Position numbers and translations under genes: made by a program | Notes under the pieces: generated by a model | What the model saw: only the letters and a program-made list of their open reading frames with translations | Database searches by the model: none | Told to the model about the DNA's origin: nothing | Assembly: GCA_024278555.1 (NCBI GenBank) | Contig: JAJRSX010000011.1 | Location: 1 to 14,425 of the forward strand | Source of the DNA: a bacterium | GTDB taxonomy: Bacteria; CG2-30-53-67; CG2-30-70-394 | Direction of reading: 5' to 3' | DNA length: 14,425 nucleotides | Part shown: in pieces, positions 4,176-14,364 of the stretch | Position numbering within the stretch: position 1 is the stretch's first letter | How the letters are laid out: every line of letters starts with the position of its first letter

Positions 4176-5198
4176 TTACCGGACGATGCGGAGGACGTCG
4201 TGGTAGGAAACAAAAAGAATAAAGGCGATCAGCAGGAGAAACGCCCCCTGCTGGACCCACTCCTCGGTCTGCTTGGCCAACGCCCGGCCGCGCACCGCCT
4301 CGATGGTGCCGAAGAGGACGTGGCCGCCGTCCAACGGCGGGATCGGCAGGAGGTTGAAGACGAAGAGGGCGATGGAGATCACCGCCATGAAGTGGACGAG
4401 GGTGGCGACACCGAAGTGGGCCGCCTGGGTCGCCATCTGGAAGATCATGATCGGCCCGCCCACGGCGGAGGCGTCCACCTTGCGGGTGACGAGCTGGACG
4501 AAGCCGGAGACGGTGCGGGCGGTGAGGTCCCACGCCTCGGCAATACCGTAGCGCACCGCCGCCACCGGCCCGAGGGGGCGCGACCAGGTGGCGCCGGAGT
4601 GGGTGACGCCGATGCGGCCCGTCTCCGGGTCCGGGGTGACCACGAGCTCCAGCCGCACCCCGTTGCGCTCGACGGTGATCTGGGTCGCCTCCCCGGGGCG
4701 CGCGTGGAGCGCCGTGGCGAGGGCCTCGAAGGTGTCGATGGGGGACCCCTCGACCACCACGATTCGGTCGCCCGCCGCCAGCCCGGCAGTGGCCGCAGCC
4801 GACTCCGCCACCACCTTGCCCACCTCCGGGGCGGTGTGGACCTCCCCCTGGACGAGGGCGAGGAGGACGAGAAAGAGGGCGCCGGCCACCGCGTTCATGG
4901 TCGGGCCGGCGAGGGCGATGACGATCTTCGCGAAGGGGCGGGCGGCGCGCGCCGCCTCCTCGTCCGGCTTCACGAAGCCGCCCACCGGGATCGGGCAGAG
5001 GCGCAATTCGGTCCCCGAGGCCAGGGGCCGCCGCCACAGGGCCGGGCCGAAGCCGATGGCGAAGACCTCCACCGGGACCCGGAAGCGGCGGAAGGCGACG
5101 AAGTGGCCCCACTCGTGGACCACGATGAGGAGACCCAAGAGAAAGAGGGTGGCGAGGATGTTGACGCCGTTCGTCGAGAGCCAGTGGAAGAAGACCAT
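4176..5198 (-). CDS. rseP: RseP-type site-2 protease (M50 family, intramembrane)
   Basis: RIP zinc metalloprotease of the inner membrane, the family that cleaves anti-sigma factors and remnant signal peptides within the membrane. The 340-aa product has HEWGH at residues 28-32 in the first membrane helix (zinc ligands H28 and H32, catalytic E29), CPIPVGGFVK at 68-77, a second helix with AGPTMNAVAG at 97-106, a single PDZ domain at about 122-190, a third helix ending in NLLPIPPLDGG (zinc ligand D290), and a last helix at about 319-331. E. coli RseP (about 450 aa) has two PDZ domains, so this is the shorter single-PDZ form. ATG 5198 puts the active-site helix at the N-terminus as expected, but no Shine-Dalgarno is visible; the sequence before it is C-rich. 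Upstream is repeat DNA, not the dxr/cdsA genes often found beside rseP. Confidence 0.93.
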   Translation of the reverse strand: MVFFHWLSTNGVNILATLFLLGLLIVVHEWGHFVAFRRFRVPVEVFAIGFGPALWRRPLASGTELRLCPIPVGGFVKPDEEAARAARPFAKIVIALAGPTMNAVAGALFLVLLALVQGEVHTAPEVGKVVAESAAATAGLAAGDRIVVVEGSPIDTFEALATALHARPGEATQITVERNGVRLELVVTPDPETGRIGVTHSGATWSRPLGPVAAVRYGIAEAWDLTARTVSGFVQLVTRKVDASAVGGPIMIFQMATQAAHFGVATLVHFMAVISIALFVFNLLPIPPLDGGHVLFGTIEAVRGRALAKQTEEWVQQGAFLLLIAFILFVSYHDVLRIVR

Positions 5199-5310: not shown

Positions 5311-5602
5311 ATGAACGCAAGGGCGCCAAGGCGCGAGGGCGCAAAGGGCGCTGGGTGTTCGCCTGGGTGCACGTGCCGAGTGGGATTTCAACGCAGAGGC
5401 GCGGGAGACGCGGAGGAGAGATCTGGCCACGGGTCGGGCGTCACCGGTGCCCGTTCGGTTGCAGGGAGGCGCCTTGAAGGCTAGGATTCAACGCAAAGGC
5501 GCCAAGGGGCCAAGGCGCCAAGGGGAGGGGGTCGGAGGGGCCGGCGTCCAACGCGGTGCGGGGCGGGTGGGGGTTCAACGCAGAGAGGATCAGCGGAAAT
5601 AG
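5311..5602. repeat. Cluster of degenerate repeats with a TTCAACGCAnAGGCGC core
   Basis: Units start near 5311 (ATGAACGCAAGGGCGCC), 5385 (TTCAACGCAGAGGCGC), 5486 (TTCAACGCAAAGGCGCC), 5546 (TCCAACGCGG, weak) and 5574 (TTCAACGCAGAG). Several continue into short GGCGCCAAGG reiterations. Spacing is uneven and the units are diverged, so this is not a CRISPR. An inverted unit lies at 251-273. The last unit runs into the GAGGATCAGCGGAAAT block (5585-5600) shared with 105-120. I see no gene in 5199-6064. Confidence 0.6.
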
Positions 5603-5669
5603 CAATGCAGGCCAAGTACGGCGTCGCTCCACGCCTCGGCCGGGAGGTGGAGGACTCCCGGAAGGGATT

Positions 5670-5835
5670 TTTCACCACAGAGAAACGGAGGGCACAGAGA
5701 ACTCCATCAGAAAACAACACGATTTTGCGCCGTCCTCGTGCACGGCAACCCCGTGGCGCTCCGTTGCGAGGCCCAGGAGGAGGAACGCACCTCTCCTTTG
5801 CAGTGCTCTGTGCCCTCTGTGTCTCTGTGGTGAAA
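5670..5835. repeat. Large inverted repeat of the CACCACAGAG type, 30-bp arms
   Basis: The left arm (5670-5699, beginning TTTCACCACAGAGA) and right arm (5806-5835, ending TCTCTGTGGTGAAA) are inverted copies that differ at about two positions in 30. They enclose about 106 bp with no gene. The CACCACAGAGrCACrGAG motif is, from memory, common in intergenic DNA of many environmental bacteria. The well-kept arms could fold into a long hairpin in RNA or act as ends of a small mobile element. Confidence 0.7.
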
Positions 5836-5984
5836 TCGCCTTCCAGGCTCGCGCCGTGATCACCTGGTGACTCCCTCGACCCTGTTGGCGGTCTCCCCTC
5901 CTCCTGAAATCTTGCCCTCTTTCCGATTGCCCATTGTCGGTCATGAGCTGGGAGCAATAGGCATTTCTTGCGATGACGGCGTCG

Positions 5985-6000
5985 GTCGGCTGAAGCCGAC
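5985..6000. repeat. Small REP-like hairpin GTCGGC-TGAA-GCCGAC
   Basis: A 6-bp perfect stem with a TGAA loop is followed by CCTACGG. The form GTCGGCTGAAGCCGACCCTAC resembles REP-type palindromes found between genes in various proteobacteria. The tail is echoed by CCACCCTACGG just before the MOSC start (about 10949-10959). Confidence 0.45.
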
Positions 6001-6025
6001 CCTACGGTCTGGCAACCCCATCTTG

Positions 6026-6041
6026 TTTCCGCTGATCCTCT
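6026..6041. repeat. Third copy of the TTTCCGCTGATCCTCT block
   Basis: This 16-bp block is identical to 106-121 and is followed by TCGTGG, as the copy at 106 is followed by a related CCGTG. It lies 24 bp past the stop of the outer-membrane protein gene. Confidence 0.5.
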
Positions 6042-6064
6042 TCGTGGTTTTCCCCGACAGGCCC

Positions 6065-7690
6065 CTAGAATCGCGTGGTGGTGAGGAAGGTCACCTTCGG
6101 CTGGTGGTTGTCGCCGTCGATGCGATCCAGCGGGAAGGCGAGGTCGAGGCGGATGACCTGCTCGCTCGCCGCCACCGGCCAGGCGAGCCGCAGGCCGAGG
6201 CCGGCGGCGGTGGCGAGGCTGGCGAGGTCGAAGCCGTCGGCGTGGCGCCAGACGGTGCCGCTGTCGATAAAGGCGAGGCCGCCCACCGCCACCACCCCGG
6301 CGATCCGGGCCGCCGCGAAGAGGCGGTCCTCCACGGTGAGCCTGAGGCGGGTGTCGCCGGTGATCGCGTGGTCGTTGTAGCCGCGCAGGCCGGTGGAAGC
6401 GCCGACCGAGAGGAAACGGTCGTCGTCGAGGTGGCGGGTGGTGAGGAGGTTGGCGCGGGCGATGAGGGTGTGGCTGAGGGCGGCGGTGTCCAGCCCGGTG
6501 TGCTGCACGACCCCCACGACCCCCGCCCCCACCTGCAGGTTCACTGCCTGGCCGCCCTCCAGGCGGCCGGAGGCGGAGAGGGAGGCGCGCACCCAGCGGC
6601 CCGGTCGCCACCGGTGGCCGTCGCTGTCGGTGAGGGCGAAGAGCAGGGCCGGCGTGTCGCTCCCCAGGGCGGTGGCAGCCACCCCGACCTCGCCGCTCAG
6701 GTCGTTGGCGAGGTTGATGTACTCGGGCCGGTCGAAGTGGTCGACGTGGCGTTCGGTCACAAAGCCGACGCCGAGCCGCCGGTAGAAGAGGCCGACGGAG
6801 TCCTCCGAGCGGTCGGTCGGCAGGTTCGTGGTGGAGGCGGTGGGGGTGAAGCGGCGGGAGGTGGCGGCGGCGAAGAGGCCGGCGCGGTGGACCACCGGCG
6901 CGCCTGATACCAGCGCCCTCGCCCACTCGACTCGCGCCGACTGGCGGGTGGCGCGGTAGCCGCTGGTCGCCACCCCGTCGTCGACGAGCGCCTCGTCGCC
7001 ACGCCGGTGGGCCGCCGTCAGCGACGCCGCCCACTCGGTCTCCAGGGCGTAGAAGGGGTGGGCGAGGGAGACCGCCGCGGACTCGCCGCTGCCGGTGTTG
7101 GTCGCATCGACGGCGCCCCGCCACCAGCTCCCGAGCAGTCGTGGGTCGAGGTAGTGGAGGGCGACCTGCGGGTCGCCGAAGCGGTTGGCGTAGGTGGCAC
7201 TGAGCCGCTTGCCGTAGCCGCCGAGGTTGGTGTCGCGCACCCCCACGGTCCAGGCAGTGCCCGCATCCACCGCGGCGAAATCGACGATCGGCTCGATCGC
7301 CCAGGCGTCCTGCGCCTCCACCACCAGCCGCACCCGGTTGTCGGCAAGGGGGGCGCAGCGGATCTGCTCGCGGCGGAGGTAGCCGAGGCCGCGCAGGTGG
7401 CGGAGGGTGTCGCGCAGCCGCTCCCGGTCCAGCCGCTCGCCGGTGTGAACGAGGAGCTCGCGCTCGATCACCCCGGGTCGGGTGGTGGCGTGCAGCCGGT
7501 TGATGGCCGCCGGGGAGAGGGGCGGCGGCAGCCGGTCGTCCGCCCCGAGGGGGGGACGGTGGACCACCTCGATGGAGGCGATGGTCGGCGCCCTGGCGAA
7601 GAGCGGCTCGCAGGTGGGGACCTCCTGCGCCGTGGCCGCGGCCGGCAGCAGGCCGAGGAGGAGAGCGAGGAGGGGGAGGAGGCGGGTCAT
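6065..7690 (-). CDS. Omp85/BamA-like outer-membrane beta-barrel protein with POTRA domain
   Basis: The 541-aa precursor has a clear signal peptide (charged start, Leu-rich core, cleavage after ATA at about residue 21). A single POTRA-like domain follows at about residues 60-126, including GERLDRERLRDTLRHLRGLG and YLRREQI. From about residue 135 the chain alternates polar and hydrophobic residues in strands, includes VRDTNLGGYGKRLSATYANR (an Omp85-style barrel start), and ends in a terminal Phe (TFLTTTRF), the usual outer-membrane assembly signal. With one POTRA it is shorter than BamA (five POTRAs, about 800 aa), so it is a minor Omp85-type protein rather than BamA. Two cysteines (C27, C112) flank the POTRA region and could form a disulfide. 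The gene starts 6 bp after the stop of the upstream lipoprotein gene and is the last of the four-gene operon. No clear ribosome binding site is seen, so translational coupling is plausible. The cargo or partner is unknown. Confidence 0.82.
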   Translation of the reverse strand: MTRLLPLLALLLGLLPAAATAQEVPTCEPLFARAPTIASIEVVHRPPLGADDRLPPPLSPAAINRLHATTRPGVIERELLVHTGERLDRERLRDTLRHLRGLGYLRREQIRCAPLADNRVRLVVEAQDAWAIEPIVDFAAVDAGTAWTVGVRDTNLGGYGKRLSATYANRFGDPQVALHYLDPRLLGSWWRGAVDATNTGSGESAAVSLAHPFYALETEWAASLTAAHRRGDEALVDDGVATSGYRATRQSARVEWARALVSGAPVVHRAGLFAAATSRRFTPTASTTNLPTDRSEDSVGLFYRRLGVGFVTERHVDHFDRPEYINLANDLSGEVGVAATALGSDTPALLFALTDSDGHRWRPGRWVRASLSASGRLEGGQAVNLQVGAGVVGVVQHTGLDTAALSHTLIARANLLTTRHLDDDRFLSVGASTGLRGYNDHAITGDTRLRLTVEDRLFAAARIAGVVAVGGLAFIDSGTVWRHADGFDLASLATAAGLGLRLAWPVAASEQVIRLDLAFPLDRIDGDNHQPKVTFLTTTRF

Positions 7691-7696
7691 GGACGG

Positions 7697-8746
7697 CTAT
7701 TCGGCAATGCGCCGCGCCGTCCCGATCACGCTCTGTGCCGCTATTTGTCCGAGCTTGCGGGCCGCCTGGACCTCCGCCTCCGGCAGGTCGATGCCCGACC
7801 CCTTGGCGTGCAGGGGCACCATCCGGGCCGGACCGGTGGGCCCCTCCAGGTCGACGCGCATCTCACCGTCGAGGTAGACAAAGGGGTGGTTGCCGGCCCA
7901 CTGCTCCCGCCGGTGGATGCGCACCGAGACCTCCCCCTTGCCGGTGGAGCCGGGGCGCAGGGAGAGGCGCTCCAGGGCGGCGGTGACCGCCTCGGTGAGG
8001 CCGTCGACCGGGGCGCCGCTGGTGTTGAGGCGCACCCCGTAGGCGGCGAGGAGGTCGCGCGCCGCCCCCTCCAGGCGGTCGACGCGCAGCTTACGCGGGA
8101 CGTCGAGGTCGTCGCCGGTGAGGGCGCGGTACTGGGCGCGGTACTCGGCGCGCCGGTCGAGGTGGAAGAGGATCGCCAGGGCCGCGCCCACCCGCTCGCC
8201 CGGTCGGTCGGCGTCGAGCCGTTTGCGCGCCCGATTCAGCCGGTCGTTCTCCACCTTGGTCCGCTCCTTGAGGTGGTCCGCCTCGGCGTCGCGGTCCAGC
8301 CGGGCGAGGCAGTACCAGGTGTCGCTGCGCCTGTTGTGGGTGATCTTGTCGAAGAAGACGGCGCGCAGCTCCACGTCGAGGGGCTCCACCAGGCCCCGCG
8401 GCGCCTCCACCCGCATACCACGGCCGCGGAGCCACTCGGCCACCGACCGCTCCGCCTCCGCCTGGACCCGGTAGAGGTCGACGTCGCGGTTGCCGCGCCC
8501 CTTTACGACGCCGACGCCGTAGAGGTCGTCGCCCTTCTCGCGTGGGTGGTCGAGCCACTTGGGCGGTCGCTTGGACTCGTCCACCTCGGGGAGGGTGGCG
8601 GGGGTGAGGCGGGTGGCGTCCGGGGCCGGGATGGCCAGCCCCTCGCGCAGGGGGCGCTTGTGGCTACAGGCGAGCCCCGTCGCGAGGGTGGCGGCGAGGG
8701 TGACGGCGAGGAGGGTGAGGCGGGTGGCGGGTACGACCGGATGCAT
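7697..8746 (-). CDS. LPP20-like outer-membrane lipoprotein
   Basis: This 349-aa precursor has a signal peptide ending in TGLAC, so Cys27 is the likely lipidation site, although Gly at -3 is not ideal for a lipobox. Residues about 62-85 (PPKWLDHPREKGDDLYGVGV) followed by an Ala- and Arg-rich helix resemble LPP20-family lipoproteins, which share a PxW...YGVG pattern and then AxxxA helices. A charged helical stretch rich in Arg, Asp and Glu fills about 150-215, and the rest looks globular. Start ATG 8746 is supported by AGGGAGAG 4 nt upstream. It lies between the repeat-type lipoprotein gene (54 bp upstream) and the Omp85-like gene (6 bp downstream). Its function is not known. The context suggests a complex in the outer membrane. 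Confidence 0.72.
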   Translation of the reverse strand: MHPVVPATRLTLLAVTLAATLATGLACSHKRPLREGLAIPAPDATRLTPATLPEVDESKRPPKWLDHPREKGDDLYGVGVVKGRGNRDVDLYRVQAEAERSVAEWLRGRGMRVEAPRGLVEPLDVELRAVFFDKITHNRRSDTWYCLARLDRDAEADHLKERTKVENDRLNRARKRLDADRPGERVGAALAILFHLDRRAEYRAQYRALTGDDLDVPRKLRVDRLEGAARDLLAAYGVRLNTSGAPVDGLTEAVTAALERLSLRPGSTGKGEVSVRIHRREQWAGNHPFVYLDGEMRVDLEGPTGPARMVPLHAKGSGIDLPEAEVQAARKLGQIAAQSVIGTARRIAE

Positions 8747-8750
8747 GGGG

Positions 8751-8758
8751 CTCTCCCT
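8751..8758 (-). promoter_or_regulatory. Ribosome binding site deciding the 8746 start
   Basis: On the minus strand AGGGAGAG lies 4 nt before ATG 8746. It supports this start, which also places the signal peptide at the very N-terminus. Confidence 0.65.
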
Positions 8759-8800
8759 GAGGGCGGCGGTGCGAGGGTGTCGCCAACGACGAGGGTGGAT

Positions 8801-10036
8801 TTAGAAGAGACGTGCCTTCACTAGATAAAACTTTCCCGCCTCCACCGCCACCTGGCGGCTGGCCACGAGTTGGCCATCCACGGTGACCTCCACCGTAGCA
8901 GAGGGGGGGGACAGGGGGATGCGGGTGAGATAGAGGGCGGCGGGGAGCGCCTCCCACGAGCGGGTGTCGGCCACCTCGGTGGCGATGCCGACCGCGCGCA
9001 CCAGGAGGCCGGCAACCTCGCCGCCGTCGCGCCGCGCCTTGCGCGCCACCACCTCCTTGGCCACCGCCCGGGCCACCAGGCGCGCCATGTCGCGGCTGCG
9101 CGCCGCGGCGAGGTCGGCGCGCGCCGCCGCCGCCAGATTTGCCGCCGGCGTCACGGCCACGGCCGCACCACCGGTGCGAACCACCACCCGCCGCCGCCCG
9201 CCGCCGCCGCCGGTGAGGCCGGGGAGCGACAGGCGTACCGGGAAGCCGCGGCCGCCCGGGACGATCACCGACTCGCTCCGCCGGTAGGGGATGCGACCGG
9301 CGTGGACCACCACCACCGCCTCCGCCGCCTCGGGCGCGGGGTCGATGGTCGGGTGGCGGGTGGCGATCTCCGCGGCCACCTCAACGAGGCCGAGGCGGTG
9401 GGCGAGGCGCAGGGCCGCCGCCACCAACGCCGGTGGCGTGCCGCCCCCCTCTTCGTAGGCGGCCAGGGCGAGGCGGTAGCTCACCATGGCGTCGTTCGCC
9501 TCCCCCGCCGCCTCGTAGACGATGCCGGCGAAGTGGCGCAGGTAGCCGACCTCGCGCCGCAGCTCGCCCCCCTTGAGGGAGCGGCCCACCGCCTGCAGGC
9601 GCAGAGCGAGCCGCCGCGCCTCCACCGCCGCCTCGGTCGGGGCGTCGAGGAGGAGGTAGTTGAGTGCCTTGTAGTACGAGATCAGGGGCTGCTCGAAGGC
9701 ATGCCCGGTGTACGGCCGGGTCTGGTCGTTGACGAGGAAGGAGAGCGTCTCGCGCGAGACGCTCTTGGTGACCGCCGCCTCCACCTGCTGGTCCGCCTCG
9801 GCAAGGAGCCGGTTGGACTCCGCGTACTCCCCGCGGAGCTGCTTCACCACCGCCGCGTCGAGGAGGTAGAGGGGGCGGTCGTTGGCGCCCACCCGCTTGC
9901 CGTAGTGGGCGAGTGCCGCGTCGGCGGCCTCGGTGCGGCCGCCGTAGAGGTCGGCCACCGACTCGCGCAGGGTGGCACGGCCGGCGCAGGCGCCTGCCGT
10001 GACGAGGAGGAGGAGGAGGGCGAGCCGCCCCGCCAC
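8801..10036 (-). CDS. COG3014-like lipoprotein with TPR-like helical repeats
   Basis: I place the start at GTG 10036, giving 411 aa. It has a strong ribosome binding site 5 nt upstream and puts the signal sequence at the N-terminus (MAGRLALLLLLVTAGAC, lipid on Cys17). A longer reading from GTG 10105 overlaps the upstream stop as GTGA but adds 23 Arg-rich residues. Residues about 30-235 look like TPR-type helical hairpins (for example PLYLLDAAVVKQLRGEYAES and YYKALNYLLLDAPTEAAVEA). A Gly-rich stretch near 285-295 separates them from a C-terminal part with beta-strand character ending in KARLF. The pattern fits, from memory, the uncharacterised COG3014 family, which tends to sit beside LpoB-like genes. 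It is the second gene of the operon. The role is unknown, perhaps a periplasmic scaffold. Confidence 0.75.
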   Translation of the reverse strand: MAGRLALLLLLVTAGACAGRATLRESVADLYGGRTEAADAALAHYGKRVGANDRPLYLLDAAVVKQLRGEYAESNRLLAEADQQVEAAVTKSVSRETLSFLVNDQTRPYTGHAFEQPLISYYKALNYLLLDAPTEAAVEARRLALRLQAVGRSLKGGELRREVGYLRHFAGIVYEAAGEANDAMVSYRLALAAYEEGGGTPPALVAAALRLAHRLGLVEVAAEIATRHPTIDPAPEAAEAVVVVHAGRIPYRRSESVIVPGGRGFPVRLSLPGLTGGGGGRRRVVVRTGGAAVAVTPAANLAAAARADLAAARSRDMARLVARAVAKEVVARKARRDGGEVAGLLVRAVGIATEVADTRSWEALPAALYLTRIPLSPPSATVEVTVDGQLVASRQVAVEAGKFYLVKARLF

Positions 10037-10041
10037 GATCG

Positions 10042-10050
10042 CCTCTCCCC
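10042..10050 (-). promoter_or_regulatory. Ribosome binding site favouring the inner GTG start
   Basis: GGGGAGAGG on the minus strand lies 5 nt before GTG 10036. It decides the start of the COG3014-like gene in favour of the shorter reading. Confidence 0.6.
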
Positions 10051-10101
10051 CCGGCCGCCTCCGCCCCGTGGCCGCCTGGAGCCTCACCGGTAGCCGCCGC
10101 C

Positions 10102-10695
10102 TCACAGCCGGGCGGCGGGCCGCTTCACGTACTTTTTGATCTTCTTGTCACCGATCCACACCTTGCGGTTGGTGCGCATGTCGATGAGCTCCAGGTTCAC
10201 CTGGTAGAAGACTACCGCCCGCCTTCCAGCCTGGTCGACGATCGAGTTGACCGACCCCAGGAGCATGTAGTCGGCGCCGCTCTCCTCGCCGTGGGAGGAG
10301 CGGGACTCCTCCTCGGTGAAGCCGGCCTGGGCGTCACGCTCCGCGCGGATCTGCTCCCGCTCCCCCGGGGCGGCGACGAAGGTCGCCTCGCCCGAGTTGA
10401 GGATCGCCCGCTGGAGGTCGTTGACGAAGGTGTGGGTGTCGATGTGCTCGGTGGAGCGGTTGCGGATCGCGCCGACGATGAGGACCGGCTGGGCGTCGCC
10501 GTGGGCGCGGCGGAACTGGTCGACCCACGGATGCGACAGGGCGTCCTGGATCATCGCCTTGGCGACCATCTGCGAGTCGGTGTCGTTCCAGCGGCCGGAG
10601 ACGTCCTTGATCTCCTCCACATCCAGCCGCTTCACCGAGGTGGCGCACGCCGCGAGGAGCAGGGGGATGAGGGCAACGATGGCAAGACGACGCAT
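10102..10695 (-). CDS. lpoB: LpoB-family penicillin-binding protein activator lipoprotein
   Basis: The 197-aa precursor has a classic lipoprotein signal, MRRLAIVALIPLLLAAC, with lipobox LAAC and lipid on Cys17. The mature part matches the LpoB/PF13036 fold: DVSGRWNDTDSQMVAKAMIQ, then VLIVGAIRNRSTEHIDTHTF, NDLQRAILNSGEATFVA, an Arg- and Glu-rich linker, GADYMLLGSVNSIVDQAG and VNLELIDMRTNRKVWIGDKK. In E. coli the outer-membrane lipoprotein LpoB stimulates the peptidoglycan synthase PBP1B across the periplasm; the family relation is clear, but whether the partner is the same is inference. ATG 10695 has a near-perfect ribosome binding site. It is the first gene of the four-gene minus-strand operon, and its stop is close to the COG3014-like start. 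Confidence 0.9.
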   Translation of the reverse strand: MRRLAIVALIPLLLAACATSVKRLDVEEIKDVSGRWNDTDSQMVAKAMIQDALSHPWVDQFRRAHGDAQPVLIVGAIRNRSTEHIDTHTFVNDLQRAILNSGEATFVAAPGEREQIRAERDAQAGFTEEESRSSHGEESGADYMLLGSVNSIVDQAGRRAVVFYQVNLELIDMRTNRKVWIGDKKIKKYVKRPAARL

Positions 10696-11889: not shown

Positions 11890-14321
<2,432 letters not shown>

Positions 14322-14364
14322 GGTGCGACCTTCGGGGAAAGTGGTGGTCAACGGGGGTGGGGGC

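What the first reader, a model, noticed from the sequence alone, without database searches (positions are those of the whole stretch)
6065..10695. Four-gene envelope operon linking an LpoB-like activator to an Omp85-type barrel
Three lipoproteins (LpoB-like, COG3014-like with TPR-type repeats, LPP20-like) and a single-POTRA outer-membrane barrel lie in tight order on one strand, all with export signals. The first three resemble a cluster known in other proteobacteria. The addition of a small Omp85-type protein 6 bp downstream suggests an outer-membrane machine that ties barrel or lipoprotein transport to peptidoglycan synthesis. No function is established for most of it.
Basis: partly seen in the sequence, partly recalled or inferred. 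Interest (0 to 1): 0.65.

Follow-up and report, generated by a model that had tools for sequence, protein, structure and literature searches.

The report
Widespread lipoprotein trio plus genus-specific barrel
Three outer-membrane-anchored lipoprotein genes that sit together in many distantly related bacteria are followed here, and so far only in this genus, by a small barrel protein of the BamA superfamily; the neighbourhood is real, but nothing shows that it ties barrel assembly to cell-wall synthesis.

Summary
The four genes are real, at the stated coordinates, on the minus strand, with 6 bp between gene 3 and the barrel. Identities hold: LpoB domain (Pfam), a TPR lipoprotein of the COG3014 type (AlphaFold pLDDT 91), a divergent LPP20-type lipoprotein (shown only with a held-out profile), and a one-POTRA Omp85 barrel. 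The trio LpoB–COG3014–LPP20 is strongly conserved: LpoB and COG3014 are adjacent in 76 of 80 named loci, and LPP20 follows in 42 of 57 with enough flank, across many phyla. The barrel is not part of it. A barrel profile that detects 11 of 11 Omp85 controls finds none in those 80 loci. The four-gene order occurs only in the window's genome and one congener, where 615 bp of dispersed repeat separate LPP20 from the barrel. The cell-wall link is weak: the genome's only class A PBP is of PBP1A type, and no UB2H domain, the LpoB docking site, was found. The genome also has its own BamA and a separate Omp85 beside TamB, so the barrel is an extra 'BamA-like' protein. Best reading: a widespread, uncharacterised outer-membrane lipoprotein trio, with an accessory Omp85 gene joined to it in one genus.

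The parts
10102..10695 (-). LpoB-family lipoprotein (PF13036), lipobox Cys17, SGRWNDTDS signature
8801..10105 (-). COG3014-type lipoprotein: TPR solenoid (about 40-250) plus C-terminal beta/long-helix domain (about 260-433); likely true start near 10036
7697..8746 (-). Divergent LPP20-type lipoprotein, third gene of the conserved trio; short helix-to-strand segment compared with most homologues
6065..7690 (-). Single-POTRA Omp85 barrel ('BamA-like'), signal peptide, 541 aa; adjacent to the trio only in this genus
7691..7696 (-). 6-bp spacer; the congener G001 has 615 bp of dispersed repeat here
4176..5198 (-). RseP-type site-2 protease (PF02163 + PDZ), next gene downstream of the barrel on the same strand, 866 bp away (about 171 bp in G001)

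Best explanation
Genes 1-3 encode a conserved set of three outer-membrane lipoproteins facing the periplasm (LpoB fold, TPR adaptor, LPP20/SHS2-type protein) that most likely act together as an outer-membrane-anchored periplasmic assembly, with the TPR protein as the binding scaffold and the LPP20-type protein as an oligomerising or structural part. Gene 4 is an accessory 'BamA-like' Omp85, extra to the genome's own BamA and to the Omp85 beside TamB, which became joined to the cluster in this genus and probably helps insert or assemble some outer-membrane client. Shown: identities, order, wide conservation of the trio, genus restriction of the barrel link, presence of other Omp85s. Inferred: complex formation, outer-membrane retention, barrel function. 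Not shown: any coupling to peptidoglycan synthesis.
For: LpoB and COG3014 on one strand in 76 of 80 named loci, median gap 15 bp; LPP20 next in 42 of 57 loci with at least 2.5 kb downstream; the same pair in about 18 families of a 98-genome sample. Barrel HMM: 11 of 11 Omp85 positive controls, 0 of 2586 frames in the 80 loci. Barrel homologues elsewhere (about 25% identity) have unrelated neighbours. G000 has BamA (TIGR03303, 640 bits) and an Omp85 about 2 kb from TamB on contig C12. No UB2H match in G000 or G001; single class A PBP with Transgly-PCB_OB-Transpeptidase. H. pylori: HP1457 is an LpoB homologue (PMC11394524), HP1456 (Lpp20) and HP1454 share an operon and both interact with the LPP20-type disk protein FlgP (PMC11756786).
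Against: Only two species of the genus were available, so 'genus-specific' rests on a small phylum sample (8 genomes). The trio is absent from the six other members of the class searched, so it may itself have been gained here. The 615-bp spacer in G001 looks like a late repeat insertion, so the tight order may be ancestral and functional. Deleting hp1456 in H. pylori gave no motor or bacitracin phenotype (PMC11756786).
Confidence: 0.6

Rival explanations
1. One reading: the four proteins form one outer-membrane machine that couples barrel or lipoprotein transport to peptidoglycan synthesis through LpoB.
For: Tight order on one strand with a 6-bp spacer; same gene order in a second species; each protein has an export signal.
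Against: Barrel absent from 80 named trio loci and from all trio loci of other families; 615 bp of repeat separate it in the congener; no UB2H hit and only a PBP1A-type class A PBP.
Confidence: 0.1
2. LpoB here still activates the genome's single PBP1A-type synthase, by a route not needing UB2H, and the COG3014 TPR protein helps as LpoA/LpoP-type TPR lipoproteins do.
For: PF13036 membership; the gene 2 TPR domain resembles, among many TPR proteins, the LpoP TPR domain 6w5q (rank 38); P. aeruginosa LpoP shows that a TPR lipoprotein can activate a PBP (PMC7267771).
Against: LpoB and LpoP both act through UB2H in studied systems (PMC7267771); TPR similarity is unspecific; TIGR02722 equivalog cut-off narrowly missed (109.8 vs 110.55).
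Confidence: 0.2
3. The barrel is functionally tied to its other neighbour, the RseP protease, or to TamB, rather than to the lipoproteins.
For: RseP is the next gene downstream in both species and nearer (about 171 bp) than LPP20 in G001.
Against: In the window the barrel-RseP gap is 866 bp, rich in repeats; G000 and G001 both have another Omp85 beside TamB, so the barrel is not needed as TamA.
Confidence: 0.1

Closest known systems
LpoB–COG3014–LPP20 cluster (Desulfobacterota, Elusimicrobiota, Fibrobacterota, Gammaproteobacteria and others)
   Same: Gene order, strand, lipoprotein signals and the SGRWNDTDS signature of LpoB
   Different: Gene 3 is divergent (12-19% identity) and has a shorter helix-to-strand segment than most; the barrel follows only here
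H. pylori HP1454/HP1456 (Lpp20) operon, with LpoB homologue HP1457
   Same: LPP20-type lipoproteins; the gene 3 family profile hits solved LPP20 proteins 4kzs (8e-5) and 5ok8 (0.012)
   Different: COG3014 partner and barrel not tested there; that 4kzs is HP1454 is from my own knowledge
'BamA-like' Omp85 subfamily of Heinz and Lithgow 2014 (PMC4104836)
   Same: 1-3 POTRA domains plus Omp85 barrel, present in addition to BamA
   Different: Their sequence clusters could not be searched here; function of the subfamily is a hypothesis
E. coli LpoB–PBP1B
   Same: PF13036 fold family; solved LpoB matched weakly (E 0.11)
   Different: No UB2H/PBP1B found, different gene context

Membership tests
LpoB family (PF13036) | Matches the Pfam model above cut-off over its full length | tested here: met
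   139 bits, cut-off 22.3, positions 1-147 of 147
LpoB equivalog (TIGR02722), PBP1B activator | Above the curated equivalog cut-off | tested here: not met
   109.8 vs 110.55 bits, a near miss
LpoB equivalog (TIGR02722), PBP1B activator | Genome encodes a UB2H-bearing PBP1B | tested here: not met
   No PF14814 hit in G000 or G001 at E 0.01; single class A PBP without UB2H; draft genome, so a missed gene is possible
LpoB equivalog (TIGR02722), PBP1B activator | Stimulates PBP activity | not testable with these tools
   needs biochemistry
COG3014-type TPR lipoprotein | Homology to the gene next to LpoB in other phyla, with lipobox and TPR solenoid | tested here: met
   the COG model itself was not available
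LPP20 (PF02169) | Matches the Pfam model | tested here: not met
   no hit at E 10 for window or G001 protein
LPP20-type third gene of the trio | Matches a profile of the third genes built without the window's own sequences | tested here: met
   51 bits, E 5e-15 (Z=1000), residues 124-340
LPP20-type third gene of the trio | Insert between SHS2 helix and second strand linked to ring formation in FlgP | tested here: inconclusive
   39 residues against about 50 in most homologues, judged from an alignment only
Omp85 superfamily | POTRA plus Omp85 barrel | tested here: met
   PF01103 over cut-off; POTRA by structure model, PF07244 below cut-off; BamA/TamA are the top structural matches (Z about 16)
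BamA (TIGR03303) | Above equivalog cut-off, five POTRAs | tested here: not met
   42 vs 297 bits, one POTRA; the genome's BamA is elsewhere
TamA | Above NF047950 cut-off, encoded by tamB | tested here: not met
   16 vs 625 bits; TamB lies beside another Omp85
BamA-like (Heinz and Lithgow) | 1-3 POTRAs, in addition to BamA, own sequence cluster | tested here: inconclusive
   first two met; cluster membership not tested

The most novel reading that the evidence does not exclude
The LpoB–COG3014–LPP20 trio is a widespread outer-membrane-anchored periplasmic ring or scaffold, unrelated to PBP1B activation, of which E. coli LpoB is a derived offshoot; in this genus it has recruited its own Omp85 as a dedicated assembly factor.
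Probability: 0.15. Interest if true: 0.7.

Novelty: new variant of a known kind. Interest (0 to 1): 0.35.

Why it matters
LpoB is read everywhere as a PBP1B activator. The trio's wide spread, and its presence in this genome without a detectable UB2H domain, suggest that the name misleads annotation outside a few lineages and that three lipoproteins conserved across many phyla still lack a function. The barrel link itself matters less, since it is confined to one genus in the data.

Tried and rejected
Barrel as BamA: rejected, BamA is on contig C145. Barrel as the missing TamA partner of TamB: rejected, an Omp85 lies beside TamB. Gene 3 by Pfam and NCBIfam: no hit. Direct search for gene 3 in 98 genomes found only the genus, because the protein is divergent; a profile was needed. 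The first LPP20 E-values came from an iterated profile that had absorbed the window's own sequence, so only the held-out test is used. Papers naming COG3014 with LpoB: none in the library. PDB code 9ccg first looked like a special relative; it is Fusobacterium nucleatum BamA. VIA-align listed no match confined to the C-terminal domain of gene 2; that domain was barely tested.

Full report
Observation. Four reading frames lie on the minus strand at the coordinates given. Gene 1 matches LpoB (PF13036, 1e-40); gene 4 matches the C-terminus of Omp85 (PF01103, 3e-6) with a POTRA match below cut-off; genes 2 and 3 have no Pfam match. The NCBI LpoB equivalog is missed by less than one bit. Genes 1-3 have lipobox cysteines at 17, 40 and 27 that are conserved in homologues.

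Identity of genes 2-4. AlphaFold gives gene 2 a confident model (pLDDT 91): TPR solenoid, then a beta and long-helix domain; TPR proteins are the structural neighbours. Gene 3 matches a profile of the third genes of other trio loci, built without the window's genus, at 51 bits; 1000 shuffles of gene 3 gave no match. The gene 3 family profile hits solved LPP20 proteins 4kzs (8e-5) and 5ok8 (0.012). Gene 4 is modelled as one POTRA plus a barrel (pLDDT 81), nearest to TamA and BamA; the strand number could not be read safely from the model.

Conservation of the trio. In 98 relatives sampled across the domain, LpoB and COG3014 homologues lie side by side in some 18 families. In 80 named loci found with an LpoB alignment, 76 have COG3014 on the same strand (median gap 15 bp), and LPP20 is next in 42 of the 57 with at least 2.5 kb beyond. 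They include Desulfobacterota, Elusimicrobiota, Fibrobacterota, Gammaproteobacteria, Kiritimatiellales and Gemmatimonadetes by record title. In 16 loci a smaller LPP20 gene also precedes LpoB. The loci were chosen by likeness to this LpoB, so the shares are not unbiased frequencies.

The barrel. It is next to the trio only in G000 and its congener G001. A barrel profile finds all 11 Omp85 control proteins and nothing in 2586 frames of the 80 named loci. Distant barrel homologues in other phyla have unrelated neighbours. In G001, 615 bp separate LPP20 from the barrel; parts of that spacer match 45 places in G001 and two weakly in G000. The barrel-RseP spacer of the window is likewise repeat-rich, with 84 matches in G000. 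So each species has repeats in a different gap, and a tight ancestral order LpoB–COG3014–LPP20–barrel–RseP is plausible but not proven.

The cell-wall link. LpoB and LpoP act through the UB2H domain of PBP1B (PMC7267771). No UB2H match was found in G000 or G001, though control hits show that the model is not very specific. G000 has one class A PBP, with Transgly, PCB_OB and Transpeptidase domains and no UB2H. The genome is a 211-contig draft estimated complete.

Other Omp85 proteins. G000 has BamA, an Omp85 about 2 kb from TamB, a short match on C208 and the window's barrel. Heinz and Lithgow (PMC4104836) describe 'BamA-like' proteins with 1-3 POTRAs that occur in addition to BamA and propose an assembly role; the barrel fits this description.

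Function. In H. pylori HP1456 (Lpp20) and HP1454 share an operon and interact with FlgP, but deleting hp1456 had no effect on motor structure, motility or bacitracin resistance (PMC11756786). FlgP forms rings through an insert between the SHS2 helix and second strand (PMC12222027). Most trio LPP20 proteins have about 50 residues in that region; the window's has 39 and two Elusimicrobia about 25. A ring or scaffold role is therefore an inference, weaker for this genus than for others.

Verdict. The sequence observation is sound; the trio is a known-type conserved cluster; the four-gene machine is not supported.

Noticed in passing
window 5577-6050: Repeat-rich spacer between barrel and RseP; up to 96% identical stretches recur at many places of the same genome, often at contig ends, and are nearly absent from the congener.
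   Followed up: partly
L065:7650-8264: 615-bp spacer in G001 between LPP20 and barrel, made of sequence dispersed at 45 places in G001.
   Followed up: partly
L134:10859-11560 and similar Elusimicrobia loci: In Elusimicrobia the trio is followed at 1-18 bp by an FKBP-type prolyl isomerase gene (identified in L134) and a further conserved gene of about 190 aa.
   Followed up: partly
L072:1453-3348: LpoB and COG3014 homologies lie in one 631-aa frame, an apparent fusion of the two.
   Followed up: no
window 11890-14351, minus strand: Lon protease lies in two overlapping frames (643 and 207 aa), whereas G001 has one 836-aa frame: a frameshift or assembly error.
   Followed up: no
G001:C177:34842-36062: A further Omp85 with distant likeness to the barrel (29% identity over its N-terminal part), on the same contig as TamB.
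   Followed up: no
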